From contig NZ_QLKQ01000007.1 in NCBI RefSeq assembly GCF_003349955.1, forward strand, positions 62,001-126,000: DNA of 64,000 bases, in the 5' to 3' direction. The notes under the pieces are model-generated. The model made no database searches, was not told where the DNA came from, and saw only the letters and a program-made list of their open reading frames with translations. This document shows, one piece after another, positions 10,730-24,252 of this stretch; position 1 is the stretch's first letter; every line of letters begins with the position of its first letter. This DNA comes from Azospirillum brasilense (GTDB lineage: Bacteria; Pseudomonadota; Alphaproteobacteria; Azospirillales; Azospirillaceae). Made by a program: the position numbers and the translations under genes.

Positions 10730-11045
10730 GGAATCCTAAGCGCGAGCGGTGGCGGAGCGTGGCCTTACCAGCCCAGCAACCCTATCTTTCGGATAGTTAA
10801 CAAAGCCTTTCAGGCATGGGCCGGGGCTGTGACAGAAGCGCAACCACAGACAGCGGCACGGTTCTTGATTGGGGCGTCGCCGGAGAACCCTGTCGACCGA
10901 GGAGCGAACGCCCGAACCACGCCCGCCATCCCCTTTCCCACGATCCCTTCCGCGCCCCATGCCCGCCGTCTCCGGCGGCGGGAGCCGTCCTGACCCGCGC
11001 GCCGTCCGCGCCGCGGCAACGGGACGCTTTTGCCCGGCGCCGGGC

Positions 11046-11079
11046 GGCAGCCCTTGCCATCCCACCGGCAGTTCTTGCC
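11046..11079. promoter_or_regulatory. Two phased GGCA-N5-TGCC dyads (putative FlbD/ftr-type enhancer)
   Basis: GGCA-GCCCT-TGCC at 11046-11058 and GGCA-GTTCT-TGCC at 11067-11079, starts 21 bp apart, ending about 65 bp upstream of the sigma-54 element of flgF. The same half-sites and spacing recur upstream of flgI and fliK. Confidence 0.6.
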
Positions 11080-11143
11080 CGGCAGGCGGTTCCCCGACGC
11101 CGAGGCCGGCCCTCCATGCCGCAACTCCGGCTCCTTCCCGCTC

Positions 11144-11159
11144 TGGCACGCGCCGTGCA
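11144..11159 (+). promoter_or_regulatory. Sigma-54 promoter of the flgF operon
   Basis: TGGCACG-CGCC-GTGCA matches the -24/-12 consensus TGGCACG-N4-TTGCA with one mismatch. It lies 56 bp upstream of the flgF ATG. Confidence 0.75.
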
Positions 11160-11215
11160 TTGCCATTTGCGCCGGTCGGGACGCTCCCCCCGGCCCGAAT
11201 GGAAAGAGGCCGCCG

Positions 11216-11938
11216 ATGGAAAACCCGATCTACGTGTCCCTGTCGCGCCAGCTCACCCTGCGCCGCCAGCTGGACGTGATCTCGAACAACATCGCGAACA
11301 TGAACACCACGGGCTTCAAGCAGCAGCGCATGCTGTTCACGGAGTTCCTGGAGCGTCCGGGCATGCACGAGCAGATCAGCTTCGTGCAGGACCGCGCCGT
11401 GGTGCGCGACCTCTCGGCCGGCGGGATGATGCAGACCGGCAATTCGCTGGATCTGGCGCTGACCGGCCATGGCTACTTCACGGTCGATACGGCCAGCGGC
11501 CCGCGCTACACCCGCGCCGGCAACTTTCGCCTGAACGACCAGCGCCAGATCGTCGACGGCGGCGGCCTGCCGGTCCTGGGCGACAACGGCCAGCCGCTGG
11601 CCATCCCGAACGGCACCAAGGACATCATGGTGTCCGGCGACGGCACCGTCTCCACCGAGCTGGGCCAGGTCGGCCGGCTGAACATCGTCACCTTCCGCAA
11701 CGAGCAGCTGATGACCGAGGTCGGCGCCGGTCTCTACGTCAGCGACGAGGAGCCGCAGGCGGCCCCCGCCGACACGAAGGTGGCACAGGGAATGCTTGAG
11801 AATTCGAACGTGAAGCCGGTGGTGGAGATGACGGCGCTGATCGAGATCCAGCGCCAGTACCAGTCCAACCAGAAGCTGATCGAGAACGAGCACGAGCGCA
11901 TCCGCAGCGCCATCCAGAAGCTGGGCCGCACGGCCTGA
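11216..11938 (+). CDS. flgF: Flagellar basal-body rod protein FlgF
   Basis: 240 residues. Start ATG at 11216 follows GGAAAGAGG; the N-terminus MENPIYVSLSRQLTLRRQLD and SNNIANMNTTGFK are the usual rod-protein axial motif. Other family landmarks are GHGYFTV, YTRAGNFRLN and the C-terminal coiled segment EMTALIEIQRQYQSNQKLI. FlgF is a proximal rod subunit exported by the flagellar type III system. Annotating from an upstream GTG or ATG would add about 60 Pro/Arg-rich residues that do not fit the family. First gene of flgF-flgG-flgA-flgH. Confidence 0.95.
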   Translation: MENPIYVSLSRQLTLRRQLDVISNNIANMNTTGFKQQRMLFTEFLERPGMHEQISFVQDRAVVRDLSAGGMMQTGNSLDLALTGHGYFTVDTASGPRYTRAGNFRLNDQRQIVDGGGLPVLGDNGQPLAIPNGTKDIMVSGDGTVSTELGQVGRLNIVTFRNEQLMTEVGAGLYVSDEEPQAAPADTKVAQGMLENSNVKPVVEMTALIEIQRQYQSNQKLIENEHERIRSAIQKLGRTA

Positions 11939-11964
11939 TCGACCGCGTTTAAGGAGTAAGGACC

Positions 11965-12750
11965 ATGCGCAGCCTCGCCATCGGCGCCACCGGCATGATC
12001 GCCCAGCAGCTGAACGTCGAAACCATCTCGAACAACATCGCCAACGCGACGACGACCGGCTTCAAGAAGCAGCGGGCCGAATTCCAGGACCTGCTGTACC
12101 AGAACTTCCGCCGCATCGGCTCCACCTCGTCGGACGCCGGCACCATCGTGCCGACCGGCGTGCAGGTGGGTGCGGGCGTGCGCGTCGCCGCGGTGGCCCG
12201 CGTGCTGGAGCAGGGCAACCTGACCGTCACCGACAACAAGCTGGACGTCGCCATCAACGGCTCCGGCTATTTCCAGGTGCAGCTTCCCAGCGGCGACACG
12301 GCCTACACCCGCGCCGGCAATTTCAAGCTGTCGCCGGAGGGCATCATCGTCACCGCCGACGGCTATCCGGTGCAACCGGCGATCACCATCCCGGCGGAAG
12401 CCGTGGACGTCGCCATCAACGCGTCGGGCGAGGTGATGGTGAAGCTGGACGGCCAAGTGGCCCAGCAGAATGTCGGCCAGCTCCAGCTCGCCACCTTCGC
12501 CAACGCGGCCGGCCTGGAAGCCGTCGGCGACAACCTGTTCCTGCAGACCGGCGCGTCGGGCGAGGCGGTCGGCGGCAACCCCGGCGCCCCCGGCTTCGGC
12601 CGCGTGGTGCAGGGCGCGCTGGAGACCTCCAACGTCAACATCGTGCAGGAGATCACCACCCTGATCTCGGCCCAGCGCGCTTACGAGATGAACTCCAAGG
12701 TCATCAAGACCACCGACGAGATGATGCAGCAGGCCTCGCAGCTCCGCTGA
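11965..12750 (+). CDS. flgG: Flagellar distal rod protein FlgG
   Basis: 261 residues, the canonical FlgG length. It starts MRSLAIGATGMIAQQLNVE, has SNNIANATTTGFKKQRAEFQD, the FlgG-specific LLYQ segment, SGYFQVQLPSGDTAYTRAGNF and ends ISAQRAYEMNSKVIKTTDEM. AAGGAG lies 10 nt before the ATG. FlgG builds the distal rod that crosses the P and L rings. 26 nt after flgF. Confidence 0.97.
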   Translation: MRSLAIGATGMIAQQLNVETISNNIANATTTGFKKQRAEFQDLLYQNFRRIGSTSSDAGTIVPTGVQVGAGVRVAAVARVLEQGNLTVTDNKLDVAINGSGYFQVQLPSGDTAYTRAGNFKLSPEGIIVTADGYPVQPAITIPAEAVDVAINASGEVMVKLDGQVAQQNVGQLQLATFANAAGLEAVGDNLFLQTGASGEAVGGNPGAPGFGRVVQGALETSNVNIVQEITTLISAQRAYEMNSKVIKTTDEMMQQASQLR

Positions 12751-12794
12751 TGTCGGCATCGCCGTAAGGCTCGTTTTTGCAAGGAAGTTCCGCC

Positions 12795-13574
12795 ATGTCC
12801 CGCCCCGCCCTGCGCATCCTCGGCACCGCCCTCCTCGCCGCCGCCCTCGCCGGCGGCCCGGCGGCCTTCGCCCGGACGGCCTTGGCTGAAACGATGGAAG
12901 GTGCCGCTCCCGCGGCGGCGCAGGCGGTGGTCTACAGCCCGGCCCATGTCGAGGCGGTGCTGTCCGACGCGCTGTCCCGCCAGATCACCACGGGCCGCCT
13001 CCAGATGGAGCTGGACAACCGGGCGGTGGAGCTGCGCGCCCCGGCGGGCGCCGGCAGCCTGACGGTGGAGAACCTCTATTACAACCCGGCGCAGGGCCGC
13101 TTCGCCGCGGAAATGATCGTGGCCGACACCCGCCCGGTCGTGCGCTTTCCGGTGTCGGGCCGCGCCTATGGCGTGGTGCAGGTGCCGGTGCTGTCGCGGC
13201 GCATCGCGCCCGGCGACGTGATCGGCCCCGGCGACGTGGATTGGCAGGACATGCGCGCCGACCTCGCCGGCAGCGACATCGCCGCCACCGACGCCCAGCT
13301 CATCGGCCTGACGCCGCGGCGCGGCGTTCCCGTGAACCAGCCCGTGCGGTTGCGCGACCTGCAGTCGCCGCGGGTCGTGGACAAGGGCGCGCTGGTCACC
13401 ATCACGCTGGCCACCGAGAACCTGACCCTGTCGGCCCAGGGCAAGGCCCTGCAGGACGGCGGCCGGGGCGACGTGATCCGCGTCATCAACACCCAGTCGA
13501 ACCGCATCCTCGAAGCGACCGTCGCCGGCCCCAACATCGTCGCCGTGGCAAAGCCCGGCGTCATCGCGAAGTAA
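12795..13574 (+). CDS. flgA: FlgA, P-ring assembly chaperone
   Basis: 259 residues. Start ATG at 12795 follows AAGGAAG; a cleavable signal peptide covers about residues 1-35 (TALLAAALAGGPAAFA). The C-terminal SAF-type domain is clear: VPVLSRRIAPGDVIGPGDVDW, LIGLTPRRGVPVNQPVR and a final GDVIRVINTQSNRILEATV block. FlgA helps FlgI assemble the periplasmic P ring. Located between flgG and flgH, as in other alphaproteobacteria. Confidence 0.95.
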   Translation: MSRPALRILGTALLAAALAGGPAAFARTALAETMEGAAPAAAQAVVYSPAHVEAVLSDALSRQITTGRLQMELDNRAVELRAPAGAGSLTVENLYYNPAQGRFAAEMIVADTRPVVRFPVSGRAYGVVQVPVLSRRIAPGDVIGPGDVDWQDMRADLAGSDIAATDAQLIGLTPRRGVPVNQPVRLRDLQSPRVVDKGALVTITLATENLTLSAQGKALQDGGRGDVIRVINTQSNRILEATVAGPNIVAVAKPGVIAK

Positions 13575-13586
13575 GGAGAAAGCTCC

Positions 13587-14372
13587 ATGTGCGCCTTCAA
13601 GATGCCCGCCCCCAAGAGCACCGCTCGCACCGCTTTCCGCTTCGCTCTGCTCGCCGCCGTTGCCGCCGGCCTTCCGGCCTGCAACGCCATGTCGCGCGTG
13701 TCGGACATCGGCTCCGCTCCCGAACTCACCAAGATCAAGGACCCGCAGGCCCAGCCCGGCTACCAGCCCGTCAGCCTGCCGATGCCCACCCCCCTGCCGA
13801 CGGAGCGCAACCCGAACTCGCTGTGGCGGACCGGCGCCAAGGCCTTCTTCAAGGACCAGCGCGCGGCCAAGGTCGGCGACCTGCTGACCGTTGACATCCA
13901 GATCAACGACCAGGCGCAGATCAACAACCAGACCACCCGCAGCCGCAACAACACTGAGCAGGCCGGCATGCCGAGCCTCTTCGGCTTCGAGGGCCAGGCG
14001 CTGCAGCGCGTGCTGCCCGACGGGGCGAACGCCGGCAGTCTGCTGAACGTCGGCAGCTCGACCTCCAACGACGGCAAGGGCGCCGTCAACCGCAAGGAGC
14101 AGATCACCCTGAAGGTGGCCGCCCTGGTCACCCAGTCCCTGCCAAACGGCAACATGGTCATCCAGGGACGGCAGGAGGTGCGGGTGAACTACGAGGTGCG
14201 CGACCTGATCATCACCGGCGTGATCCGGCCCGAGGACATCACCGCGCAGAACACCATCAGCTACGAAAAGGTCGCCGAGGCCCGCATCTCCTACGGCGGA
14301 CGCGGCCAGATCACCGACGTGCAGCAGCCGCGCTACGGCCAGCAGCTCTTCGACATCATCATGCCGTTCTGA
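13587..14372 (+). CDS. flgH: Flagellar L-ring lipoprotein FlgH
   Basis: 261 residues. A lipobox (GLPAC, Cys at about 32) ends the signal peptide, as expected for the outer-membrane L-ring lipoprotein. FlgH landmarks follow: NSLWRTGAKAFFKDQRAAKVGDLLTV, split by QINDQAQINN, then NMVIQGRQEVRVNYE, GVIRPEDI and QPRYGQQLFDIIMPF at the end. Ribosome-binding AAGGAGAAAG precedes the ATG. Last gene of the operon, 12 nt after flgA. Confidence 0.97.
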   Translation: MCAFKMPAPKSTARTAFRFALLAAVAAGLPACNAMSRVSDIGSAPELTKIKDPQAQPGYQPVSLPMPTPLPTERNPNSLWRTGAKAFFKDQRAAKVGDLLTVDIQINDQAQINNQTTRSRNNTEQAGMPSLFGFEGQALQRVLPDGANAGSLLNVGSSTSNDGKGAVNRKEQITLKVAALVTQSLPNGNMVIQGRQEVRVNYEVRDLIITGVIRPEDITAQNTISYEKVAEARISYGGRGQITDVQQPRYGQQLFDIIMPF

Positions 14373-14484
14373 GAACGGTCAGGGGACACGGAGCGGAAAC
14401 GCAGACGAAGAACGACACGGACGCGGCACGGGCGTGTTTCGATGGTCGCGCCACGCCCCAGTCACGCGCCGCTCCCGCTGGGCA

Positions 14485-14514
14485 GGCAGTTTCTGCCGCC
14501 CGGCGCCTTCTGCC
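14485..14514. promoter_or_regulatory. Orphan GGCA-N5-TGCC dyads downstream of flgH
   Basis: GGCA-GTTTC-TGCC at 14485-14497 and GGCG-CCTTC-TGCC at 14502-14514. They resemble the putative enhancers of flgF, flgI and fliK, but are 17 bp apart and have no recognisable -24/-12 element nearby. Confidence 0.4.
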
Positions 14515-14760
14515 GTCCCCTTCCCTACCCACCCGGAGCTTGGCACCGTCCCGTCCGCGGCGACGGCCCCGGACGCTCGGCGCGCTTGAGCGGGTGTCGT
14601 CGCCGGCCTGGGCTTGCGCCGCGCCGGGCACACGCAAGCCGGCTGCACCGGCAAGGTGCATGGGGAGGCATGGCTATCCCTTCCGACGCATCACGATCCG
14701 ATGCCCAGATCGCGGAAGAGCGCCGGCCGCGCGATGGCCGTGGCGGCGGGTTGGGCAACC

Positions 14761-14786
14761 GCAAAGCCTGATGTGTCAGGCTTTGC
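14761..14786 (-). terminator. Hairpin downstream of the RTX gene
   Basis: Perfect 11-bp inverted repeat GCAAAGCCTGA / TCAGGCTTTGC with a 4-nt loop, 28 bp past the RTX stop. No T-tract follows on either strand, so termination is plausible but not certain. Confidence 0.5.
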
Positions 14787-14814
14787 GCTCGATGACAGCG
14801 GGGGGCCGCTTTTT

Positions 14815-15930
14815 CTACTTGAGACCGAAAGCGAGATATCCGTTGCCCTCGACCTGGCCCGGAGTGGTCAGGATCGAACCGGAGGATTGGCCGGAAACAG
14901 TCATGCTCATATCGATGCTGCCGTTGCCATCCAGGTCGATGTGAGCCGTGGCGCCCTTGTAGCCTTCGGCGCCACCCATCTCCTGCCAAGTCAGTTTCGA
15001 GACTCCCTCCTTCCAACCCCAGGCGGTCACCCACTCCCCCGCCTCCAGGTCGGTGACGGTGGACCAGGTCACGCCGCCGCTGCGACCGTCGACGAAGAAT
15101 GTGTCCGTGCCCCAGCCGCCGGTCAGGAAGTTGGAGCCCAAACCGCCGTCGAGGACGTCGTCGCCATTCCGCCCGTCGATCGCGTCATCGCCCTCCAGCG
15201 CGTTGATGAAATCGGCTTGGCTCGAGCCCCGGATCGCTTCGCCGGCAGCGGTGCCAATGTGCTGGTTCACCACCCCCGCCACCGGACCGTAATAAGCGGC
15301 CATCGTAGTCTCGACACTGGCACCGCCGGTCGTGATGGCGACACGGTTGGTCGGATCATTTCTGTAGTCGATGGTCGCTCGAGTCTGGAGCAGGGATTCT
15401 CGGTTCAGGTAGTAGCCCAACGCCTCGTTGATATCCGAAGTGTTCAGACGCGCAATGTTCATCCGATCCGTAAACGCTTCCCATGAAAAATTCCCAAGAA
15501 AACCTGGAGCCTTGGGAAGCAAAGAAATAATACTGTCATATGAATGGACCGAATCGGACAAAGTTATTTGTTCGATCTTGAATCGGGGATCAAGATAATT
15601 GAGGACATACACCAACTGACCGGACTTCGTGTCACCGACCACCAAATGGCGTCCATCGATCGTTGCCGCGTACGTCGTCGGTCTGCTGACGCCGATTCCC
15701 GATGCGATCAATTGATCGAAAGAACCATCCGAATCGGCAATCACAATCGCTCCCGACGTTTGAAGCGAATACGTATCGTTTCCAGCGCCCCCAAGGAAAA
15801 AAACGAAATCAACCCCGTATTGACCGTAAAATACATCATTGCCTTGCAGACCGAAAAACACTGTATTTCTCGAGGCCGCCATGGTATCGCCGCTTTTTGA
15901 ACCGATGCGCTCGGAAAACCTCAGTGTCAT
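14815..15930 (-). CDS. RTX-type calcium-binding protein, probable type I secretion substrate
   Basis: 371 residues. Two glycine/aspartate-rich regions are visible: near the N-terminus (GLQGNDVFYGQYG, GGAGNDTYSL) and at about 250-290 (DFINALEGDDAIDG, NGDDVLDGGLGSNFLTGG), matching the hemolysin-type nonapeptide GGxGxDxUx. Such beta-rolls bind Ca2+ after export through a type I system; there is no N-terminal signal peptide, consistent with this. AAGAGGA lies before the ATG at 15930; an alternative start is at 15882. The 5' half of the gene is visibly AT-richer than its neighbours, which with its place inside a flagellar cluster suggests acquisition. The segment between the repeats is not recognised. 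Confidence 0.8.
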   Translation of the reverse strand: MTLRFSERIGSKSGDTMAASRNTVFFGLQGNDVFYGQYGVDFVFFLGGAGNDTYSLQTSGAIVIADSDGSFDQLIASGIGVSRPTTYAATIDGRHLVVGDTKSGQLVYVLNYLDPRFKIEQITLSDSVHSYDSIISLLPKAPGFLGNFSWEAFTDRMNIARLNTSDINEALGYYLNRESLLQTRATIDYRNDPTNRVAITTGGASVETTMAAYYGPVAGVVNQHIGTAAGEAIRGSSQADFINALEGDDAIDGRNGDDVLDGGLGSNFLTGGWGTDTFFVDGRSGGVTWSTVTDLEAGEWVTAWGWKEGVSKLTWQEMGGAEGYKGATAHIDLDGNGSIDMSMTVSGQSSGSILTTPGQVEGNGYLAFGLK

Positions 15931-16267
15931 TTCTCGATCCTCTTGTTATCAAATGACCATCTTGCCAGCGCTCGACTTGCCCTTCAGCGCTCGGCGTTCA
16001 CCGGCCCGCACCCGACGTTGCGATCCGCGTCGGAATCAGGACCGGCACCGCCATGACTCGTTGTTGGGCATACCGAGGCGCTTACACCCGCCATCAAGCT
16101 CTACCAAAGAGGGTGTGAAAAGGAAATTCAAAACAGTTTATGACCAATGGCGGATGTTGGCGGCGTGATGCGTCCCTCAAGAATTGAAAGGATACGCTTC
16201 TGGAGAGCGGGACCGGGCAGCAGCGGCCATCATTCCAAAGGGGGCGGTCCTCTTTGCGCCGGGCCCG
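15931..16267. other. Intergenic region upstream of the RTX gene
   Basis: About 340 bp, AT-richer than the surroundings. It should contain the RTX promoter on the minus strand, but I see no clear consensus, repeat or gene. Confidence 0.4.
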
Positions 16268-16777
16268 TCACCCGCCCCCGGCCAGAAGCGCCTCGTAACG
16301 CCGGACGGTTTCCCGCATCTCCTCAAGGATCTGACGCTGCTCCTCGTTCACCGCCCGGACGCGCTCCGCGTCGGTGCGCGCTTGCTCGGCATGGAGCCGG
16401 GCCTCCTCGGCGTAACGCCGGGTCCTTTCATGGAGCCGCCGCGCCCGCTCCTCCGAGAGGCGCGCCTCCTCCGCCGACAACCGGGCCATCTCGGCGGATT
16501 GGCGAAGCTCCTCGTCCAGGATGCGCACCTCCTCCGCTTCCTGGCGCCGCGTTTCTCCGGTGATCCGCCCCTCTTCCGCGATCAGCCGGGCCCCTTCCGC
16601 TTCGACATGGCGCTGGAAATGCGCCGCCCGCTCCTCTTCGGCCTCCTCCCGCATCCGCTCAGCCCCGGCGCGTGCCTCTTCGGCCCGGCTGCGCCGCACC
16701 TCGCTGCGCCGACGCCAATCCTCGGCATCGGGGGTCCGCGCCTCAGGGTGGTTCGTGGGATGATGAGCCTGGGTCAT
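16268..16777 (-). CDS. Hypothetical highly charged long-helix protein
   Basis: 169 residues, almost entirely Glu, Arg and Ala in short repeats such as MARLSAEEARLSEERARRLHE and AEEARLHAEQARTDAERVR. This is typical of a single long charged helix or coiled coil. No signal peptide, membrane segment or known domain. The start overlaps by 35 nt the small upstream gene ending at 16743. High GC can create long false frames, but composition and absence of proline in the core argue for a real protein. Function unknown. Confidence 0.55.
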   Translation of the reverse strand: MTQAHHPTNHPEARTPDAEDWRRRSEVRRSRAEEARAGAERMREEAEEERAAHFQRHVEAEGARLIAEEGRITGETRRQEAEEVRILDEELRQSAEMARLSAEEARLSEERARRLHERTRRYAEEARLHAEQARTDAERVRAVNEEQRQILEEMRETVRRYEALLAGGG

Positions 16778-16928
16778 GGGGCTTCCCTTTCAGCAGGCGG
16801 TGAGACCCTTCCAACGCCTTCTCGGCGGAGCGCAGGCGCTCATGGGATCGGTCCAGGAGGCGCGTCCTGCGTGCCTGCGCCTCCCGGACCAGGGCCTGCA
16901 ATGTCTCGATCCGCTTCAGGACATCCAT
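16743..16928 (-). CDS. Small hypothetical helical protein (61 aa)
   Basis: Start ATG at 16928, chosen because the longer upstream frame reads as low-quality Pro/Arg sequence. The protein starts MDVLKRIETLQALVREAQ, is Arg/Leu/Glu-rich to about residue 47 (one amphipathic helix) and ends in a polar tail. It overlaps the next gene by 35 nt in a different frame. Possible partner of the charged-helix protein; no family recognised. Confidence 0.45.
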   Translation of the reverse strand: MDVLKRIETLQALVREAQARRTRLLDRSHERLRSAEKALEGSHRLLKGKPHDPGSSSHEPP

Positions 16929-17312
16929 TTCACCGTCAACAGGCCGTTCTGGCAACCCGCACCATCGGGTTGTGAAGAACCGACCCGGGCGGACGGGCGG
17001 ACGCGCGAAAGCACCACACCACAAGGCGATGCGTCACCGGAAGACGCTCGCCTTTTGGTGGCGCGGCGGCAGAGAGGGGCAAGCCGTTTCCCGGGCTGGC
17101 CGGCGCCGGCCGGAACCGGTAGCGTGACGGTTCCTTGCAGCGGGCCCGCGGCCGGCCCGAGCGAACCAAGCCCCGACAGAGGGGCGGGCCGCAACCCCCT
17201 CAGCACGCCGTCGGACATTCACCCCGACACCGTCCCCGAACGGACAAAAGCCCCCGCCGGGATCGGAGGGGGCCTGTCCAAGGCGCGGCCGGAGACGCGG
17301 GCAACCGCCGCG
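16929..17312. other. Intergenic region between the coiled-coil pair and dksA
   Basis: About 380 bp; contains the dksA terminator (17242-17278). Frames here on both strands are low-complexity GC-rich shadows. Confidence 0.5.
17242..17278 (-). terminator. Intrinsic terminator of dksA
   Basis: Read on the minus strand, GGACA-GGCCCCC and GGGGGC pair and are followed by TTTTGTCC. It lies 35-70 bp after the dksA stop. Confidence 0.75.
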
Positions 17313-17732
17313 TCAATCGTCCCGCTGGGTGCGCTCCATGCGCTCGTGCCGTTCCTGGGCTTCCAGGCTCAGCGTCGCGATGGGACGGGCGTCGAGGCGG
17401 CGGACGGAGATGGGCTCCCCCGTTTCCTCGCAATAGCCGTAGGACCCATCCTGCAACCGCTCCAGCGCCGCGTCGATCTTGGAGATCAGCTTGCGCTCGC
17501 GGTCGCGGGTGCGGAGTTCCAGCGCCCGGTCGGTTTCGGCCGACGCGCGGTCGGCGATGTCCGGTTCCTGGATGCCGCCTTCCTGAAGGCTGCTCAGGGT
17601 CTCGCTGGATTCAGCCAGCAGCTCCGCGCGCCAGCGCAGCAGCTTCTGGCGGAAATATTCCCGCATCACGGGATTCATGAACTCCTCGTCTTCCGACGGG
17701 GTGTAGTTCTTAGGCAGAAGCGGAGACGACAT
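17313..17732 (-). CDS. dksA: DksA-type RNA polymerase-binding transcription factor (degenerate zinc finger)
   Basis: 139 residues from the ATG at 17732 (MSSPLLPKNYTPSEDEEFM). The coiled-coil tip motif DxxDxA is present (PDIADRASAETDRA). The C-terminal finger reads YGYCEETGEPISVRRLDARP and then LSLEAQERHER: only the first of the four zinc cysteines of E. coli DksA remains. Cysteine-poor DksA proteins of this form are usual in alphaproteobacteria. DksA binds in the RNAP secondary channel and with ppGpp controls rRNA, stress and flagellar promoters. Monocistronic, with its own terminator. Confidence 0.9.
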   Translation of the reverse strand: MSSPLLPKNYTPSEDEEFMNPVMREYFRQKLLRWRAELLAESSETLSSLQEGGIQEPDIADRASAETDRALELRTRDRERKLISKIDAALERLQDGSYGYCEETGEPISVRRLDARPIATLSLEAQERHERMERTQRDD

Positions 17733-17921
17733 CCGAGAGCATCCAACGCAAAAGGGTGATCCGGGCGGCGCGGAGTATAGGTAGGCGCATCGGCAACCGC
17801 AACCCCGCGCTTCGCCTATCGAAGCGCGAACAAGCCCTTGGAGAAGCAAAGTTTTGTGAAAGGTTCGGCGATGGCCGTACGGCCGATGCCGAAAAGCCGG
17901 TCCTATGGCCGGAAACCGCGC

Positions 17922-18338
17922 TCAGGGGGTGAGCTTCGCAAGCTCGACCTGGGCGCGCAGGTCGATCTGGTCGAGGATGTCGGCCAGACGCGGATCGTCC
18001 ACATGGACGCGGCGCGACTGCACCACCTTCACGAGGTCCATCAGCTTCTGCGCCGGAAGCGTGCCGGCGAGAAGCCCGTGCTGGATTTCCTCCAGCTTGT
18101 CGAGCATCTCCTCGGCGCGCATCTTGCCGCGCGACGCGCGGGCCGTGGCGTCGTCCACCTCCTGCAACGCCAGCACGCTGGCGATGCCGGCCAGCGGCGC
18201 CGCGGCATGGACGCCCTGGGCGGTGTTGGTCTCGCCGACGAGCTGCTTGGAAAAGGACGCACCGGACGAGCCTTCGGCCTTCCCCGTGCGCCGGACCGAG
18301 CTGCTGCCGCGAAGTTTTCCGGGGCCTTCGACTTTCAT
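17922..18338 (-). CDS. fliX: FliX, flagellar assembly regulator
   Basis: 138 residues from the ATG at 18338. The start MKVEGPGKLRG, the central GIASVLALQEVDDATARASRGK and the segment LDKLEEIQHGLLAGTLP match Caulobacter-type FliX. In Caulobacter, FliX couples basal-body assembly to the sigma-54 activator FlbD and is divergent from flgI, the same arrangement as here. Its own promoter region holds a near-perfect CtrA box (18389-18403). No flbD is in the window. Confidence 0.88.
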   Translation of the reverse strand: MKVEGPGKLRGSSSVRRTGKAEGSSGASFSKQLVGETNTAQGVHAAAPLAGIASVLALQEVDDATARASRGKMRAEEMLDKLEEIQHGLLAGTLPAQKLMDLVKVVQSRRVHVDDPRLADILDQIDLRAQVELAKLTP

Positions 18339-18388
18339 GTTCCGTGCAACCGGTTTCGGAAAAGCGCGATACTCTAGATGGAAGCACC

Positions 18389-18403
18389 TTAACATCCGGT
18401 CAA
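18389..18403. promoter_or_regulatory. CtrA-like box upstream of fliX
   Basis: TTAA-CATCCGG-TCAA: the CtrA pattern TTAA-N7-TTAA with one mismatch, about 50-65 bp upstream of the fliX ATG. CtrA control of fliX is known in Caulobacter; here it is inferred. Confidence 0.5.
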
Positions 18404-18431
18404 GGTTTGCCGCAATCGGGCAAAAATTGCC
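18399..18431. promoter_or_regulatory. Phased dyads upstream of flgI (putative FlbD sites)
   Basis: A perfect GGCA-AAAAT-TGCC at 18419-18431 (extended to GGGCA...TGCCC) and a weaker GTCA-AGGTT-TGCC at 18399-18411, 20 bp apart, about 110 bp upstream of the sigma-54 element. Confidence 0.55.
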
Positions 18432-18540
18432 CCGCTTCCGTGACATAAAGCGGTCCGGCGCGGTGCCAATTTCCGGCCTTTTCATCCGGCGGCGCCGCTT
18501 CCCCTTGCCAATCCTGCCCTTCGCCTGCCATCCGCGGCTC

Positions 18541-18556
18541 TGGCACGCTGTTTGTA
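18541..18556 (+). promoter_or_regulatory. Sigma-54 promoter of the flgI operon
   Basis: TGGCACG-CTGT-TTGTA: perfect -24 element, -12 element with T in place of C. It lies 35 bp upstream of the flgI ATG. Confidence 0.7.
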
Positions 18557-18590
18557 TAGGAAGGGACAGCCCGTTGAGGAGTGTCCCCGC

Positions 18591-19754
18591 ATGACCGCCA
18601 CCGCCCTGACCCGTGCCACCATGCCGCGCACCGCCGTCCTGCTGCGCGCGGTCGCGATGCTGGCTGCCCTGGCCGCGGCCTTGCTCGCGCTGTCGGGGCC
18701 GGCCTCGGCCTCCTCGGCGCGGATCAAGGACATGGTGGACGTCGAGGGCGTGCGCGACAACATGCTGATCGGCTACGGCCTGGTGGTCGGCCTGAACGGC
18801 ACGGGCGACAGCCTCAACAACTCGCCCTTCACCGAGCAGAGCCTGGTCGGCATGCTGGAGCGCATGGGCGTCAACACCCGCGGCACCAACCTGCGCACCA
18901 AGAACGTGGCGGCGGTGATGGTGACGGCGACCCTGCCGCCCTACTCCGCCCAGGGCACGCGCATCGACGCCACCGTGTCGGCGATGGGCGATTCGAAGAG
19001 CCTGCTCGGCGGCACGCTGCTGGTCACCCCGCTGCTGGGCGCCGACGGCGAGGTCTATGCCGTGGCCCAGGGGCCGATCGCGGTGTCCGGCTTCTCCGCC
19101 CAGGGCCAGGGGGCCAGCGTGACGCGCGGCGTCCCCACCTCGGGCCGCATCTCCTCGGGTGCCATCGTCGAGCGCGAGATCCAGTTCTCGCTGGCCGAGC
19201 TGCCGGTGCTGCGCCTGTCGCTGCGCAACCCGGACTTCACCACGGCGCAGCGCGTGGCCACCGCCATCAACATCCAGCTCCGCGGCAACCGCGCGCAGGC
19301 CACCGACCCGTCCTCGGTCCTGCTGAGCGTTCCGGAGGCGCGGCGCGGCGACATCGTCGGCCTGATCACCGAGATCGAGCAACTCCGCGTCACCCCCGAC
19401 CAGGTCGCCCGCGTGGTGGTGGACGAGAAGTCCGGCGTGATCGTGATGGGCGAGAACGTCCGCATCTCCACCGTCGCCATCGCCCAAGGCAACCTGACCA
19501 TCCGCGTCACCGAGACGCCGCAGGTCAGCCAGCCCGGCCCCTTCAGCCAGGGCCAGACCGCCGTGGTGCCGCGCACCGACATCCAGGTGGACGACCAGTC
19601 CAACAACCGTCTCGCCGTGATGAATTCCGGGGTGACGCTCCAGGAGTTGGTACAATCCTTGAATGCGCTTGGCGTGGGTCCCCGGGACATGATCGCCATC
19701 CTTCAGTCGATCAAGGCCGCCGGAGCCCTGCAGGCGGAGATCGAGGTGATCTGA
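18591..19754 (+). CDS. flgI: Flagellar P-ring protein FlgI
   Basis: 387 residues from the ATG at 18591, preceded by GAGGAG. A signal peptide (about 1-40, ending ASA) is followed by ARIKDMVDVEGVRDNMLIGYGLV, the classic FlgI start. Other landmarks: VGLNGTGDS, KNVAAVMVTATLPPY, the C-terminal VVPRTDIQVDDQ and LNALGVGPRDMIAILQSIKAAGALQ split at family-conserved points. Forms the periplasmic P ring. An upstream TTG would overlap the -12 element and is rejected. Confidence 0.97.
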   Translation: MTATALTRATMPRTAVLLRAVAMLAALAAALLALSGPASASSARIKDMVDVEGVRDNMLIGYGLVVGLNGTGDSLNNSPFTEQSLVGMLERMGVNTRGTNLRTKNVAAVMVTATLPPYSAQGTRIDATVSAMGDSKSLLGGTLLVTPLLGADGEVYAVAQGPIAVSGFSAQGQGASVTRGVPTSGRISSGAIVEREIQFSLAELPVLRLSLRNPDFTTAQRVATAINIQLRGNRAQATDPSSVLLSVPEARRGDIVGLITEIEQLRVTPDQVARVVVDEKSGVIVMGENVRISTVAIAQGNLTIRVTETPQVSQPGPFSQGQTAVVPRTDIQVDDQSNNRLAVMNSGVTLQELVQSLNALGVGPRDMIAILQSIKAAGALQAEIEVI

Positions 19755-20179
19755 TGGATACGACGCTTTCCCTTCCCGGCCTTCCGCCTCCGCGCCTGCC
19801 CGCGGCCGCCGAGCGCGCCCAGAGCAACGCCCAGCCCGGTGCGCAGGCGAGCTTCCGGACGGCGGTGCGCACCGATCTGGTCGATCCCAAAAGCGCGGAG
19901 AGCCCCAAAAGCGCGGAGAGCAAGGTGGACCCGGCGATCCGCGCCAAGATCCGCCAGTCCGCGAACGAGTTCGAGAGCGTCTTCGTCTCCCAGATGCTGG
20001 GCCACATGTTCGACGGGATCGAAGTGGACCAGACCTTCGGCGGCGGCCATGCCGAGGAGATGTTCCGCTCCATGCTGACCAACGAATACGGCAAGCAGAT
20101 GTCCCGCAGCGGCGGGTTCGGCATCGCCGATCAGGTTTACCGCGAGCTTCTGCGCGCACAGGAGGGCACCCATGGATAA
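19754..20179 (+). CDS. flgJ: FlgJ-type rod-binding protein (no muramidase domain)
   Basis: 141 residues, overlapping the flgI stop (TGATG). Only the rod-cap domain is present: SANEFESVFVSQMLGHMFDGI and FGGGHAEEMFRSMLTNEYG, then GFGIADQVYRELLR. Like the single-domain FlgJ/CheL proteins of Caulobacter and rhizobia, it lacks the C-terminal peptidoglycan hydrolase of enterobacterial FlgJ. A tandem PKSAES repeat sits at about residues 45-56. Confidence 0.9.
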   Translation: MDTTLSLPGLPPPRLPAAAERAQSNAQPGAQASFRTAVRTDLVDPKSAESPKSAESKVDPAIRAKIRQSANEFESVFVSQMLGHMFDGIEVDQTFGGGHAEEMFRSMLTNEYGKQMSRSGGFGIADQVYRELLRAQEGTHG

Positions 20180-20687
20180 GGTCGACGTCCGTTTCCCGCA
20201 GCCGTCCAAGGCTCCCGCCGCCAATCTGCCCAAGAACGCGGAGGAGCGCGCGGTCGCGCTGGTCGAGCTGATGAACCGGCTGAGCGCCCATCTGGCGCGC
20301 GAGACCGAGGCGGTGATGCGCCACTGCACCAGCGCCGAGCTGGCCCGGCTGGGGCGCGAGAAGCAGCCGATGATGCTGGTCTATGAAGAGGTGTCGCGCC
20401 TGCTGCGCGTGGACCGCGAGGGCATGGCCGCCCTGCCCGACGAGGCCAAGGCCGCGCTGCGCGAGGCCACGCGCGGCCTGTACGAGGCGTCCGCCGCCAA
20501 CGCCGACGCGCTCCGCCGCAACAGCGCGGCGCAGAAGATCCTGGTGGACACCGTGGTCGGCGCCATCAACCGCGCCCGGCAGACCACCACCCCCGCCTAC
20601 GGCACCGCCCCGGTTCCGCCCCGCGCGACCTACGTCACGCCGAGCCATGGGCCGTCGACCTCAGCCACCCTCAACACCCGTCTCTGA
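20172..20687 (+). CDS. FlbY/FlgN-like flagellar export chaperone candidate
   Basis: 171 residues, overlapping flgJ by 8 nt. A helical core (AVALVELMNRLSAHLARE, RLGREKQPMMLVYEEVSRLL, LYEASAANADALRR) matches the general FlgN-like pattern of a helical bundle that holds hook-associated proteins before export. In Caulobacter the flgI operon is flgI-cheL-flbY, the same order, so FlbY is the likely counterpart. Pro/Thr-rich tail from about 138. Assignment by position and pattern rather than strong motif. Confidence 0.7.
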   Translation: MDKVDVRFPQPSKAPAANLPKNAEERAVALVELMNRLSAHLARETEAVMRHCTSAELARLGREKQPMMLVYEEVSRLLRVDREGMAALPDEAKAALREATRGLYEASAANADALRRNSAAQKILVDTVVGAINRARQTTTPAYGTAPVPPRATYVTPSHGPSTSATLNTRL

Positions 20688-20718
20688 CGCCTCTCCCGGC
20701 GTCACCGACATCCGCAGC

Positions 20719-20745
20719 AAGGGCCGTCCGACCGGGCGGCCCTTC
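20719..20745 (+). terminator. Intrinsic terminator of the flgI operon
   Basis: AAGGGCCG and CGGCCCTT pair around a GC-rich loop, about 32 bp after the last stop. The T-run is short. Confidence 0.6.
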
Positions 20746-20760
20746 GGCGTTGCCGGGTCC

Positions 20761-20814
20761 GGCAAGAAGCGCCGGCCACCCGGCGGAATTTGCCGGCCGG
20801 CGGACGGAACTGCC
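20761..20814. promoter_or_regulatory. Three phased dyads upstream of fliK (putative FlbD enhancer)
   Basis: GGCA-AGAAG-CGCC at 20761-20773, GGCG-GAATT-TGCC at 20782-20794 and GGAC-GGAAC-TGCC at 20802-20814. Starts are 21 and 20 bp apart, so all lie on the same face of the helix, 45-100 bp upstream of the sigma-54 element. Confidence 0.6.
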
Positions 20815-20857
20815 GGGCGCGGAACGACGGTCCGACGCACCGGCGCCGGCCTGAAAC

Positions 20858-20873
20858 TGGCCCGTTAGTTGCT
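20858..20873 (+). promoter_or_regulatory. Sigma-54 promoter of fliK-flgD
   Basis: TGGCCCG-TTAG-TTGCT: perfect -12 element and one mismatch in the -24 element. About 40 bp upstream of the fliK ATG. Confidence 0.75.
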
Positions 20874-20914: not shown

Positions 20915-22945
20915 ATGGCCATCCAAACGAACACCGCGCCCACCGCGTTCGAAAGCCTGGTCAGGGGTCAGACCTCGTCCAGCCAGAACACGGCTCCGCG
21001 AAGCGACAAGTTCGCCTCGATGATGGACCGGCTGATCAGCGAGGCCGCCACCCGCAAGCGCGATCAGGTTCAGGCGGAGAGCGCGGCCCAGGATCGGCGC
21101 AACGCCACGGCAAGCGCGGCCGACCAGGCGGCCGCCGATCGGGCCGCCGCCCGCAAGGCGGCGGAACGCAACCCGCCGTCCCGCCCCGACCCAATCCGCG
21201 CGGAGCCCGCCAAGCCGCGCCAGGCCTCCGAAGCGACCACCCAGGCCGAGGCCCGCGCCGCCCGCAAGGACGAGGCCCAGCGCGCCGCCGACCGCAGAGA
21301 CGCCCGCGCGTCCGATGCGGCCAAGGCCGGCGACTCCGCCCACACGACGCGCACCGAACGGCGCGAGGCCGCCGCGGCCAACCACGCCGCGGCCAAGGAT
21401 GCGAAGGCCGCCAGCGCCAAGACCGCGCAGGAAGACGCCGCCGCCAAGCCCGAGCCCACCGGCACCGCCGCTCTCGCCGACATGGCGGAGGAGCTTCCGT
21501 CGGACGAAACCGGCAGCGCGCTGGGCGATGGCACCGCCCAGGACGGTGCCGGCAATCAGGCCGCGGAGGATGGGAACGGCGATGCCGTGATCCTCGACCT
21601 GACCGTCACCGTGACCGAGACCACCGTGGAGCTGGTCACCGCCGACCAATCCGCCACCCTGACCGACAGGGAGGCTGCCCTCTCGCTGGCCGTCGCCCAG
21701 GTCGCCGTCGGCACGCCGGACGGCGCTGAGGCCGACAAGGCGACCGAGAACGACGCGGTCGCCTTGTCGGCCCCGGTCGAGGCCACGCCGTCCGGCAGCC
21801 CGACTCCGGACGGCGAGAAGGCTCCTTCCGCCGCGGACGCCGCCGCGGAGGCCGCCTTGGCCGCCGCCCTGGCGGCCGCCGGCGCTCCCCATCCGGACGG
21901 CAAGGCCAAGGCCGCCGACGAGTCGGTGAAGGCCGCGGGCACGGCCAAGCCGGCCACGGAAGCGCCTGCGGCGCTGGCGGGAGCCGCGCCGGCGCCGGCC
22001 GCTCCGACCGACGGCCCGCAGATCGAGGTGCCCGCGCCCCACGCCGAGGCCCAGGATGCCGCCACCAAGGACAAGCCGGCGAAGGCCGCCGACACGCTGT
22101 CCTCCGGCGCCCCGCCCCCCGGTGCTCTGCCCATCGCCGACCTGCCGAACGACGACGGCGCGCCGCTGCCGCAATCCCTGACCGATCTCGCCGCCGCCAA
22201 GGCCAAGGGCGCGAACCGGACAGGGGCGGACGGCGATGCCGGGGCCAACGCCGGCAACCGCGGCAACCAGGACCCGAGCGGCAACGCCGGCTTGGCGCAA
22301 CCACCGGCCCCCCAGGCACCGGTTGCCGACCCGGCAAAGCCTGCTGGGCAAAGCGCGTTCCTGACCGCCGCCGCGGACACGCCGCCGCCGGCCGACGGCA
22401 CGCCACACCCCGCGACCCCCACCCACCCGGTCTTCGCCGGGATCGAGGGGGTGCACACGGCAAGCGGTGTCGATGCGGGGCTGACCACCGCCCAGCTTCG
22501 CCCGTCCCGCGGGTCCGCCGGCCTGCCGATGGGCGTGCAGGATCAGGTGGCCGTCCACATCAGCAAGAACGTGTCGGACGGCAACGACCAGTTCACCATC
22601 AACCTGCGCCCCGCCGAGTTGGGCCGCATCGACATCAAGTTGGAAATCGGCCAGGACGGGCGGGTCACCGCGTCGGTCGCCGTGGAGAAGGCCCAGACCC
22701 TCGAACTGCTGCAGCGTGACAGCCGCAATCTGGAACGCGCCTTGCAAGACGCCGGACTGAAGGCGGACAGCAACAGCCTCAACTTCAGCCTGCGCGGTGA
22801 AGGCGGCCAGTCGTTCCAGGACTCGGGACGGCAGGGCGGCTCGGGCCGGCGGGGCCGCAGCCTCGGCGGCGGCGGAGAGGTGGAGGATGCGCAGGCCGCC
22901 TACACCCTGACGCTGGCCCCGGGCCGCGTCGACATCCAAGCCTGA
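20915..22945 (+). CDS. fliK: Flagellar hook-length control protein FliK
   Basis: 676 residues. The N-terminal 500 or so are Ala/Asp/Lys/Pro-rich and low-complexity, as in the export-ruler part of FliK. The conserved C-terminal FliK domain is clear: QVAVHISKNVSDGNDQF, then NLRPAELGRIDIKLEI, VTASVAVEKAQTLELLQRD and LERALQDAGLK. FliK sets hook length and triggers the switch in export specificity. First gene after a sigma-54 promoter; flgD follows after 40 nt. Confidence 0.92.
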   Translation: MAIQTNTAPTAFESLVRGQTSSSQNTAPRSDKFASMMDRLISEAATRKRDQVQAESAAQDRRNATASAADQAAADRAAARKAAERNPPSRPDPIRAEPAKPRQASEATTQAEARAARKDEAQRAADRRDARASDAAKAGDSAHTTRTERREAAAANHAAAKDAKAASAKTAQEDAAAKPEPTGTAALADMAEELPSDETGSALGDGTAQDGAGNQAAEDGNGDAVILDLTVTVTETTVELVTADQSATLTDREAALSLAVAQVAVGTPDGAEADKATENDAVALSAPVEATPSGSPTPDGEKAPSAADAAAEAALAAALAAAGAPHPDGKAKAADESVKAAGTAKPATEAPAALAGAAPAPAAPTDGPQIEVPAPHAEAQDAATKDKPAKAADTLSSGAPPPGALPIADLPNDDGAPLPQSLTDLAAAKAKGANRTGADGDAGANAGNRGNQDPSGNAGLAQPPAPQAPVADPAKPAGQSAFLTAAADTPPPADGTPHPATPTHPVFAGIEGVHTASGVDAGLTTAQLRPSRGSAGLPMGVQDQVAVHISKNVSDGNDQFTINLRPAELGRIDIKLEIGQDGRVTASVAVEKAQTLELLQRDSRNLERALQDAGLKADSNSLNFSLRGEGGQSFQDSGRQGGSGRRGRSLGGGGEVEDAQAAYTLTLAPGRVDIQA

Positions 22946-23804: not shown

Positions 23805-23907
23805 ATGCTTAAAACATTAACCCTATCGTTTAGGCTTTTGTTAAGCGGAGAAGGGGTAGGTTACCACCAAATCGTGGAATACACTGCTGATGGTGGAGCG
23901 TCCGCGC

Positions 23908-24252
23908 ATGTCATCTCGCGAGCTTGAAATGAGCGACGATGGCTCCAGTGGAGCGTCGGTCATCGGTCCAGCAGGACGGCCGATGACAGAAAATGATCTT
24001 CCCCCTCCGGACACCAAGCGCTGGGTCATGCGGCGCAAGGCGGAGGTCGTGGCCGGCGTGCGTTCGGGGCTGATCAGCCTCGAGGAGGCGTGCCGCCGCT
24101 ACACCCTGTCCGTGGAAGAGTTCCTGTCCTGGCAACGGCTGATCGACAGCCACGGCATGCGGGGCCTGCGCGCCACGCGGCTTCAGGACTATCGCGGGAA
24201 CCAGCCGCCGCCCTCCGTGCGCAGCCGCATGGCCAGCACCGCCGCCGAATAA
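23908..24252 (+). CDS. sciP: SciP-type CtrA inhibitor (DUF1153)
   Basis: 114 residues from the ATG at 23908, which has GGTGGAG 9 nt upstream; an ATG at 23890 and one at 23929 are alternatives. The core is very close to Caulobacter SciP: DLPPPDTKRWVMRRKAEVVAGV, then GLISLEEACRRYTLSVEEFLSWQ and LRATRLQDYR, a small helix-turn-helix protein. In Caulobacter SciP binds CtrA and promoter DNA to shut off CtrA-activated motility genes. Its place at the end of a flagellar cluster that contains CtrA-type boxes supports the same role. Upstream there are TTAA half-sites (23817, 23841) but no full CtrA box. Confidence 0.88.
   Translation: MSSRELEMSDDGSSGASVIGPAGRPMTENDLPPPDTKRWVMRRKAEVVAGVRSGLISLEEACRRYTLSVEEFLSWQRLIDSHGMRGLRATRLQDYRGNQPPPSVRSRMASTAAE

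What the first reader, a model, noticed from the sequence alone, without database searches (positions are those of the whole stretch)
11046..20873. Phased GGCA-N5-TGCC dyads upstream of sigma-54 flagellar promoters: a candidate FlbD-type enhancer code
Seen directly: upstream of fliK three dyads start at 20761, 20782 and 20802; upstream of flgF two at 11046 and 11067; upstream of flgI two at 18399 and 18419. Spacing is 20-21 bp in each case (about two helical turns). Each set precedes a -24/-12 element (20858, 11144, 18541). Established: in Caulobacter the activator FlbD binds paired upstream sites at sigma-54 flagellar promoters and is controlled by FliX, which is encoded here. Inference: these dyads are the FlbD sites of this lineage, and regular helical phasing is part of the code.
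Basis: partly seen in the sequence, partly recalled or inferred. Interest (0 to 1): 0.75.

Follow-up and report, generated by a model that had tools for sequence, protein, structure and literature searches.

The report
Helically phased flagellar enhancer sites (FlbD-type)
Small palindromes in front of flagellar genes of this Azospirillum bacterium look like docking sites for a known flagellar switch protein (FlbD), and in related bacteria they tend to sit whole turns of the DNA helix apart, which suggests that the spacing itself is part of the signal.

Summary
The dyads are real, but only 3 of the 7 listed match GGCA-N5-TGCC exactly. The host is an Azospirillum. Single dyads are no commoner than a reversed control (209 vs 318). 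Pairs 20-21 bp apart are: 3 places in 7.1 Mb, control 0, about 0.012 expected. These are the flgF promoter, the region upstream of fliF in the cluster encoding the FlbD candidate, and a flagellin promoter. The fliX-flgI block is nearly invariant in 17 relatives; at fliK 31 of 32 site gaps are 20-21, 32-33 or 44 bp.

In 385 alphaproteobacterial genomes strict pairs occur in 38 at 20-21 bp, 4 at 25-26 bp and 32 at 30-32 bp; controls 2, 2, 4. All 38 carry FliX, as do 208 of 385 overall. A flagellar gene was recognised in 27 of 39 pair stretches outside Azospirillum.

Best reading: FlbD enhancer (ftr-type) sites whose helical phasing is under selection. FlbD binding is not shown. FlbD, FliX and ftr sites are known from Caulobacter, so this extends a known kind; the class-wide phasing counts and a diguanylate-cyclase promoter of the same design are the new details.

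The parts
11022..11034 (.). degenerate dyad GGACGCTTTTGCC, outermost site of the flgF array
   Evidence: position kept, with sequence variation, in the 7 relatives whose flgF upstream is covered; 24 bp from the next site, i.e. out of phase
11046..11058 (.). dyad GGCAGCCCTTGCC, proposed FlbD site (flgF)
   Evidence: exact motif; centre 93 bp upstream of the -24 GG
11067..11079 (.). dyad GGCAGTTCTTGCC, proposed FlbD site (flgF)
   Evidence: exact motif, 21 bp from the previous; one of 3 strict-pair places in the genome
11144..11158 (+). sigma-54 -24/-12 element TGGCACGCGCCGTGC of flgF
   Evidence: GG-N10-GC; TGGCACG and the TGC kept in the 7 aligned relatives
11216..11938 (+). flgF
   Evidence: Pfam Flg_bb_rod, LlgE_F_G_D1, Flg_bbr_C
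14485..14514 (.). second dyad pair GGCAGTTTCTGCC / GGCGCCTTCTGCC, 17 bp apart, downstream of flgH
   Evidence: similar dyads in the same place in several relatives; target gene not identified, no clear -12 box
17922..18338 (-). fliX, divergent from flgI
   Evidence: Pfam FliX E 7.9e-44
18389..18392 (.). TTAA box next to the dyads on the fliX side (CtrA-like, by recall)
   Evidence: kept in the window and 16 of 17 aligned relatives, broken in L027
18399..18411 (.). degenerate dyad GTCAAGGTTTGCC, proposed FlbD site between fliX and flgI
   Evidence: GGTCAAG-N2-TTGCC in the window and 17 of 17 relatives L018-L034; not in the distant MAG L035
18419..18431 (.). dyad GGCAAAAATTGCC, proposed FlbD site between fliX and flgI
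   Evidence: exact motif; same 13 bases in 15 of 17 relatives, GGCAAAATTTGCC in the other two
18541..18555 (+). sigma-54-like -24/-12 element TGGCACGCTGTTTGT of flgI
   Evidence: TGGCAY kept in 17 of 17 aligned relatives; the -12 part is TTGT in most, TTGC in L028, TTGA in L027
18591..19754 (+). flgI
   Evidence: reading frame and close relatives; about 67-78% identity to matches outside the genus
20761..20773 (.). degenerate dyad GGCAAGAAGCGCC, fliK array
   Evidence: same 13 bases in the 6 close relatives aligned
20782..20794 (.). dyad GGCGGAATTTGCC, fliK array
20802..20814 (.). degenerate dyad GGACGGAACTGCC, fliK array
   Evidence: same in 5 of 6 close relatives; GGCGGGAACTGCC or GGCCGGAACTGCC in most of the more distant ones
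20858..20872 (+). sigma-54 -24/-12 element TGGCCCGTTAGTTGC of fliK
   Evidence: GG-N10-GC; kept in the 6 close relatives aligned by fliK start; the wider set was picked by its TGGCCC box
20915..22945 (+). fliK
   Evidence: Pfam Flg_hook E 7e-15

Best explanation
The dyads are binding sites (ftr-type enhancer elements) of the NtrC-family activator FlbD, which drives sigma-54 promoters of the later flagellar genes and is held in check by FliX until the early structure is built. Each 13-bp dyad GGCA-N5-TGCC would bind one FlbD dimer through its Fis-type HTH. Two to four dimers lie on the same face of the DNA because their centres are about 2, 3 or 4 helical turns apart; they assemble the AAA+ hexamer, which loops to the -24/-12 element 43-117 bp from the nearest site and opens the promoter with ATP. 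The same sites upstream of the fliF-motA-flbD-flhA cluster and next to fliX would let FlbD feed back on its own operon and on its own controller. Shown here: the sites, their conservation, their phasing, their flagellar location and their co-occurrence with FliX. Inferred: FlbD as the binder, hexamer assembly, activation at sigma-54 promoters, and feedback (probably repression) at fliF and fliX.
For: Strict pairs at 20-21 bp: 3 places in 7.1 Mb against 0 control, at flgF, upstream of fliF-flbD, and at a flagellin with a TGGCCCATTTATTGC box. Genus: 328 pairs at spacing 13-43 in 45 genomes against 28 control, 45 of 45 genomes with at least one (some lie in coding sequence or in a tandem repeat). 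Class: 38 of 385 genomes at 20-21 bp, 4 at 25-26, 32 at 30-32; controls 2, 2, 4. FliX in 38 of 38 genomes with a 20-21 bp pair and 208 of 385 overall; among genomes of 3 Mb or more, 31 of 123 with FliX and 0 of 47 without have the pair. A flagellar gene was recognised in 27 of 39 pair stretches outside Azospirillum. fliK site gaps: 31 of 32 are 20, 21, 32, 33 or 44 bp in 17 orthologous promoters. The FlbD candidate has GAFTGA and a Fis HTH. FlbD/FliX/ftr biology: passages of PMC3930126, PMC3096577, PMC7064773.
Against: No binding or expression data. Four of the seven listed dyads are degenerate. Some conserved spacings are out of phase: 24 and 14 bp at flgF, 17 bp at 14485/14502. In 12 of 39 pair stretches no flagellar gene was recognised (8 of these 12 were checked only by tblastn), several inside long reading frames, so some pairs are chance. 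Only 38 of the 208 FliX genomes have a strict 20-21 bp pair. PMC3169532 (passage) says that A. brasilense FlbD concerns lateral flagella, whereas the flagellin with four dyads has the size reported for the polar one.
Confidence: 0.85

Rival explanations
1. The dyads are sites of another Fis-type enhancer-binding protein (NtrC-like), and FlbD acts elsewhere.
For: The genome has 12 strong sigma-54 activator domains (E below 1e-50); proteins of this family often bind dyads (recalled). I did not test which of the 12 other than the FlbD candidate might fit.
Against: Phased pairs track FliX and flagellar genes, and one sits upstream of the gene cluster that encodes the FlbD candidate. Other activators were not tested for the same co-occurrence.
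Confidence: 0.08
2. Chance palindromes in GC-rich sequence, selected by eye.
For: Single dyads are not enriched (window matrix scan 22 against 17.5).
Against: Pairs are strongly enriched against the reversed control in genome, genus and class, and the sites are conserved at the flagellar promoters while the flanks drift.
Confidence: 0.02
3. The sites bind FlbD, but the spacing is only inherited and helical phasing is no functional requirement.
For: Related promoters share ancestry; out-of-phase sites exist (14, 17, 24 bp).
Against: Within fliK the gaps changed by about 11-12 or 23-24 bp, not by half turns (step test p about 0.006, steps not fully independent and periods from 10 to 12 bp fit about as well). 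Class-wide the half-turn class 25-26 bp is near control level while 30-32 bp is enriched again.
Confidence: 0.15

Closest known systems
FlbD / ftr enhancer elements with FliX control, Caulobacter crescentus
   Same: FlbD-like and FliX proteins, flagellar sigma-54 promoters, and a site upstream of the early fliF gene (ftr4, through which FlbD represses fliF according to a passage of PMC3930126)
   Different: Here arrays of two to four dyads with measured helical spacing, one next to fliX and one at a diguanylate cyclase; binding not shown. The Caulobacter consensus was not available in a held paper; my recollection (CGGC--AAA--GC-G) comes from no call and overlaps the dyad
NtrC sites of the glnA enhancer (recalled, from no call)
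   Same: Paired dyads about three helical turns apart that seed an oligomer
   Different: Different dyad sequence, regulator and target genes
Flagellar sigma-54 circuits of FlrC, FleR and FlgR (passage of PMC7064773)
   Same: An enhancer-binding protein couples flagellar assembly to sigma-54 rod and hook genes
   Different: Those use a sensor kinase; FlbD is controlled by FliX

Membership tests
FlbD-ftr sites | genome encodes FlbD (receiver-like domain, AAA+ with GAFTGA, Fis-type HTH) | tested here: met
   L040:4795-6333 minus: Pfam Sigma54_activat, HTH_8, Response_reg below its cut-off; GAFTGA present; between motA and flhA
FlbD-ftr sites | FliX present | tested here: met
   window 17922-18338 minus, PF10768 E 7.9e-44
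FlbD-ftr sites | sites lie at sigma-54 flagellar promoters | tested here: met
   flgF, flgI, fliK and a flagellin, each with a -24/-12-like box; flgI has GT at -12
FlbD-ftr sites | site at the early fliF operon (as ftr4) | tested here: met
   pair at C35:10214-10247 upstream of fliF
FlbD-ftr sites | match to the published ftr consensus | tested here: inconclusive
   two primary papers looked up and not held; consensus only recalled
FlbD-ftr sites | FlbD binds the element | not testable with these tools
   needs footprinting or ChIP
Helically phased enhancer | site spacing concentrated at whole helical turns | tested here: met
   38, 4 and 32 of 385 genomes at 20-21, 25-26 and 30-32 bp; controls 2, 2, 4. 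Exceptions at 14, 17 and 24 bp
sigma-54 dependence | promoter activity needs RpoN | not testable with these tools
   literature only: an rpoN mutant of A. brasilense Sp7 lacks both lateral and polar flagella (passage of PMC12826043)

The most novel reading that the evidence does not exclude
Across the class, FlbD enhancers follow a helical grammar: distances between sites, and from the array to the -24/-12 box, evolve mostly in whole helical turns. The same code marks the activator's own gene cluster and the promoter of its controller fliX (a two-point feedback), and reaches outside the flagellum to a diguanylate cyclase, so that completion of the early flagellum would directly switch on c-di-GMP synthesis.
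Probability: 0.45. Interest if true: 0.65.

Novelty: new member of a known kind. Interest (0 to 1): 0.5.

Why it matters
It turns the operator into a searchable signature (paired GGCA-N5-TGCC at 20-21 or 30-32 bp) that picks out likely FlbD targets across Alphaproteobacteria without annotation. It offers a natural experiment on why enhancer-binding proteins care about the face of the DNA, and it names new candidate targets, notably a diguanylate cyclase, which would tie flagellar assembly to the motile-to-sessile switch.

Tried and rejected
Chance or base composition: rejected for pairs, kept for single dyads. A lineage-specific code: rejected, the pairs occur across the class.

The query was my error: 18590-20179 is out of frame with flgI and joins an out-of-frame stretch to the rod-binding (FlgJ-like) domain. 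It still found 17 close relatives (16 labelled Azospirillum, one labelled Roseomonas) and one distant MAG (L035); positions were re-mapped with the correct proteins.

A weight matrix on single dyads did not separate sites from background. The own-genome scan for dyad plus -24/-12 gave 6 matches against 2 control: C46, fliK and C152 are supported by other evidence, C132 is plausible, C22 and C139 look like chance and were not examined further. The target of the 14485/14502 pair was not resolved.

In the listings (capped at 10-20 papers each) no title or abstract start reports this motif in Azospirillum or these spacing counts; of the papers I saw only passages. Papers under subscription are not in that library.
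Full report
OBSERVATION. All seven positions were read back. Three are exact GGCA-N5-TGCC (11046, 11067, 18419); four are degenerate. The spacings 21 (flgF), 20 (flgI) and 21/20 (fliK) are as stated. The sigma-54 elements are GG-N10-GC for fliK and flgF and GG-N10-GT for flgI. Genes were confirmed by Pfam for flgF, flgG, flgA, flgH and fliL, fliK and flgD and fliX; flgI by frame and relatives. The window's close relatives are Azospirillum by their record titles (16 of 17; one is titled Roseomonas), with one distant MAG besides.

IS IT MORE THAN CHANCE? Single dyads are not: 209 in the genome against 318 for the reversed pattern, and 22 against a mean of 17.5 in window shuffles. Pairs are: at 20-21 bp there are four pairs at three places and none in the control, with about 0.012 expected from the single-dyad density. 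At spacings 13-43 the genome has 6 pairs and the control 2; the six spacings are 21 (four times) and 30 (twice). At 44-74 bp there are 3 pairs and no control hit: two join members of the same four-dyad array, the third is on C63 and was not examined. In 45 Azospirillum genomes there are 328 pairs at spacings 13-43 against 28 in the control, and 45 of 45 have at least one. The list is capped after nine genomes and part of a tenth; it includes a tandem repeat in G007 and a conserved 18-bp pair that by its distance from flgF corresponds to coding sequence of fliK, so not every pair is an enhancer. G035, with 24 pairs, was not listed.

WHERE THE PAIRS LIE. In this genome: flgF (window 11046); C35:10214-10247, upstream of fliF on the contig that also carries motA, the FlbD candidate and flhA in the same orientation; C152:470-554, four dyads before a gene whose Sp7 counterpart is annotated flagellin, with TGGCCCATTTATTGC; and C46:45538-45580, two dyads 30 bp apart before a GGDEF protein with TGGCACGGCGATTGC. 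The GGDEF promoter, with box and both dyads, is conserved in four named Azospirillum plasmid records.

CONSERVATION. Between fliX and flgI, GGTCAAG-N2-TTGCCGCAAT followed by GGCAAAAATTGCC (one base different in L029 and L031) stands in the window and 17 of 17 relatives while the flanks drift; the distant MAG keeps only the second dyad. At fliK, 17 promoters (the window and 16 relatives, picked by a TGGCCC box) keep two or three sites; 31 of 32 gaps are 20, 21, 32, 33 or 44 bp (one weak extra site in L020 gives 27). The site nearest the -24 GG lies at 49-52, 60-61, 70-71 or 82 bp. A Rayleigh test at 10.5 bp gives p = 0.011 for 12 array-to-promoter distances and p = 0.006 for nine step sizes. 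These states are not fully independent, periods from 10 to 12 bp fit the steps about equally, and the site matrix was partly trained on the same sites, so this is support, not proof. Exceptions: 24 and 14 bp at flgF and 17 bp at 14485/14502.

CLASS-WIDE TEST. In the same 385 alphaproteobacterial genomes strict pairs occur in 38 at 20-21 bp, 4 at 25-26 bp and 32 at 30-32 bp; reversed controls hit 2, 2 and 4 genomes. Per spacing value that is 19, 2 and 10.7 genomes against about 1 in the controls. FliX (PF10768) is present in 208 of 385: in 38 of 38 genomes with a 20-21 bp pair, 30 of 32 with a 30-32 bp pair (not in G180 and G202) and 4 of 4 with a 25-26 bp pair. Genome size and composition confound this: 7 of 8 genomes with a control hit also have FliX. 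Among genomes of 3 Mb or more the 20-21 bp pair is in 31 of 123 with FliX and 0 of 47 without (Fisher p about 1e-5). The 39 stretches that hold the listed 20-21 bp pairs outside Azospirillum were all fetched; in 27 a flagellar gene was recognised (flagellin, fliX or flgI, fliK, flhA-flbD). Of these, L064, L065 and L087 have flhA about 2 kb off, L079 and L080 have the nearest recognised flagellin about 1.7 kb off, and in L061 the pair lies beyond the 3' end of a flagellin. The 12 others include one beside an SLT-domain protein (L052) and one beside a GT41/TPR protein (L058), which may be flagellar but were not counted; 8 of the 12 were checked by tblastn only. Strict pairs 20-21 or 30-32 bp apart lie within about 140 bp of the fliX start in several families (for example G134, G053, G186, G170, G124, G164, G107 and G203).

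MECHANISM. Best reading: FlbD dimers on the same DNA face, hexamer, looping to sigma-54 RNA polymerase, gated by FliX. The FlbD candidate has GAFTGA and a Fis HTH; its receiver scores below Pfam's cut-off and by eye lacks the usual acidic pair and lysine, in keeping with FliX rather than phosphorylation control (passages of PMC3096577 and PMC3930126). Two early units also carry the sites: the fliF-motA-flbD-flhA cluster and fliX, each with a TTAA box just beyond the dyads. By analogy with ftr4 at fliF in Caulobacter (passage of PMC3930126) this suggests feedback; it is inference.

TENSION WITH THE LITERATURE. PMC3169532 (passage) states that FlbD concerns lateral flagella in A. brasilense. The flagellin with the four-dyad array is annotated in strain Sp7 as a 2013-nt gene, which fits the 65 kDa given for the polar flagellin rather than the 45 kDa of the lateral one (passage of PMC12826043). 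Either FlbD also serves the polar flagellum or that flagellin is not the polar one; this was not resolved.

NOVELTY. FlbD, FliX and ftr sites are established. The class-wide spacing counts, the whole-turn changes at fliK and the diguanylate cyclase target did not appear in the titles or abstract starts listed; the library lacks most subscription papers. New member of a known kind, with a testable quantitative rule.

Noticed in passing
own genome C46:45488-45580 (L043:6636-7581, minus): A GGDEF (diguanylate cyclase) gene has a consensus sigma-54 box TGGCACGGCGATTGC and two dyads 30 bp apart, conserved in four named Azospirillum records: a candidate non-structural FlbD target.
   Followed up: partly
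own genome C132:12419-12508 (L068): A gene for an alanine-rich protein of unknown function (read by eye) has TGGCACGCCGGTTGC and a dyad GGCAGCTCTTGCC upstream.
   Followed up: no
14485-14514: Dyad pair 17 bp apart after flgH, with similar dyads in several relatives; its target is unknown and no clear -12 box follows.
   Followed up: partly
23890-24252: DUF1153 protein (PF06627) beside flgD; by recall this is the family of the CtrA inhibitor SciP.
   Followed up: no
14815-15930 (minus): Reading frame with RTX calcium-binding repeats (PF00353) between flgH and fliX.
   Followed up: no
L041 and L076 (A. brasilense Sp7 plasmid p3): The flagellin with the four-dyad array has the size reported for the polar flagellin, while one paper links FlbD to lateral flagella.
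   Followed up: partly
class-wide 30-32 bp pairs: Listed spacings look two-peaked at 30 and 32 bp with few at 31 (tallied by eye).
   Followed up: no
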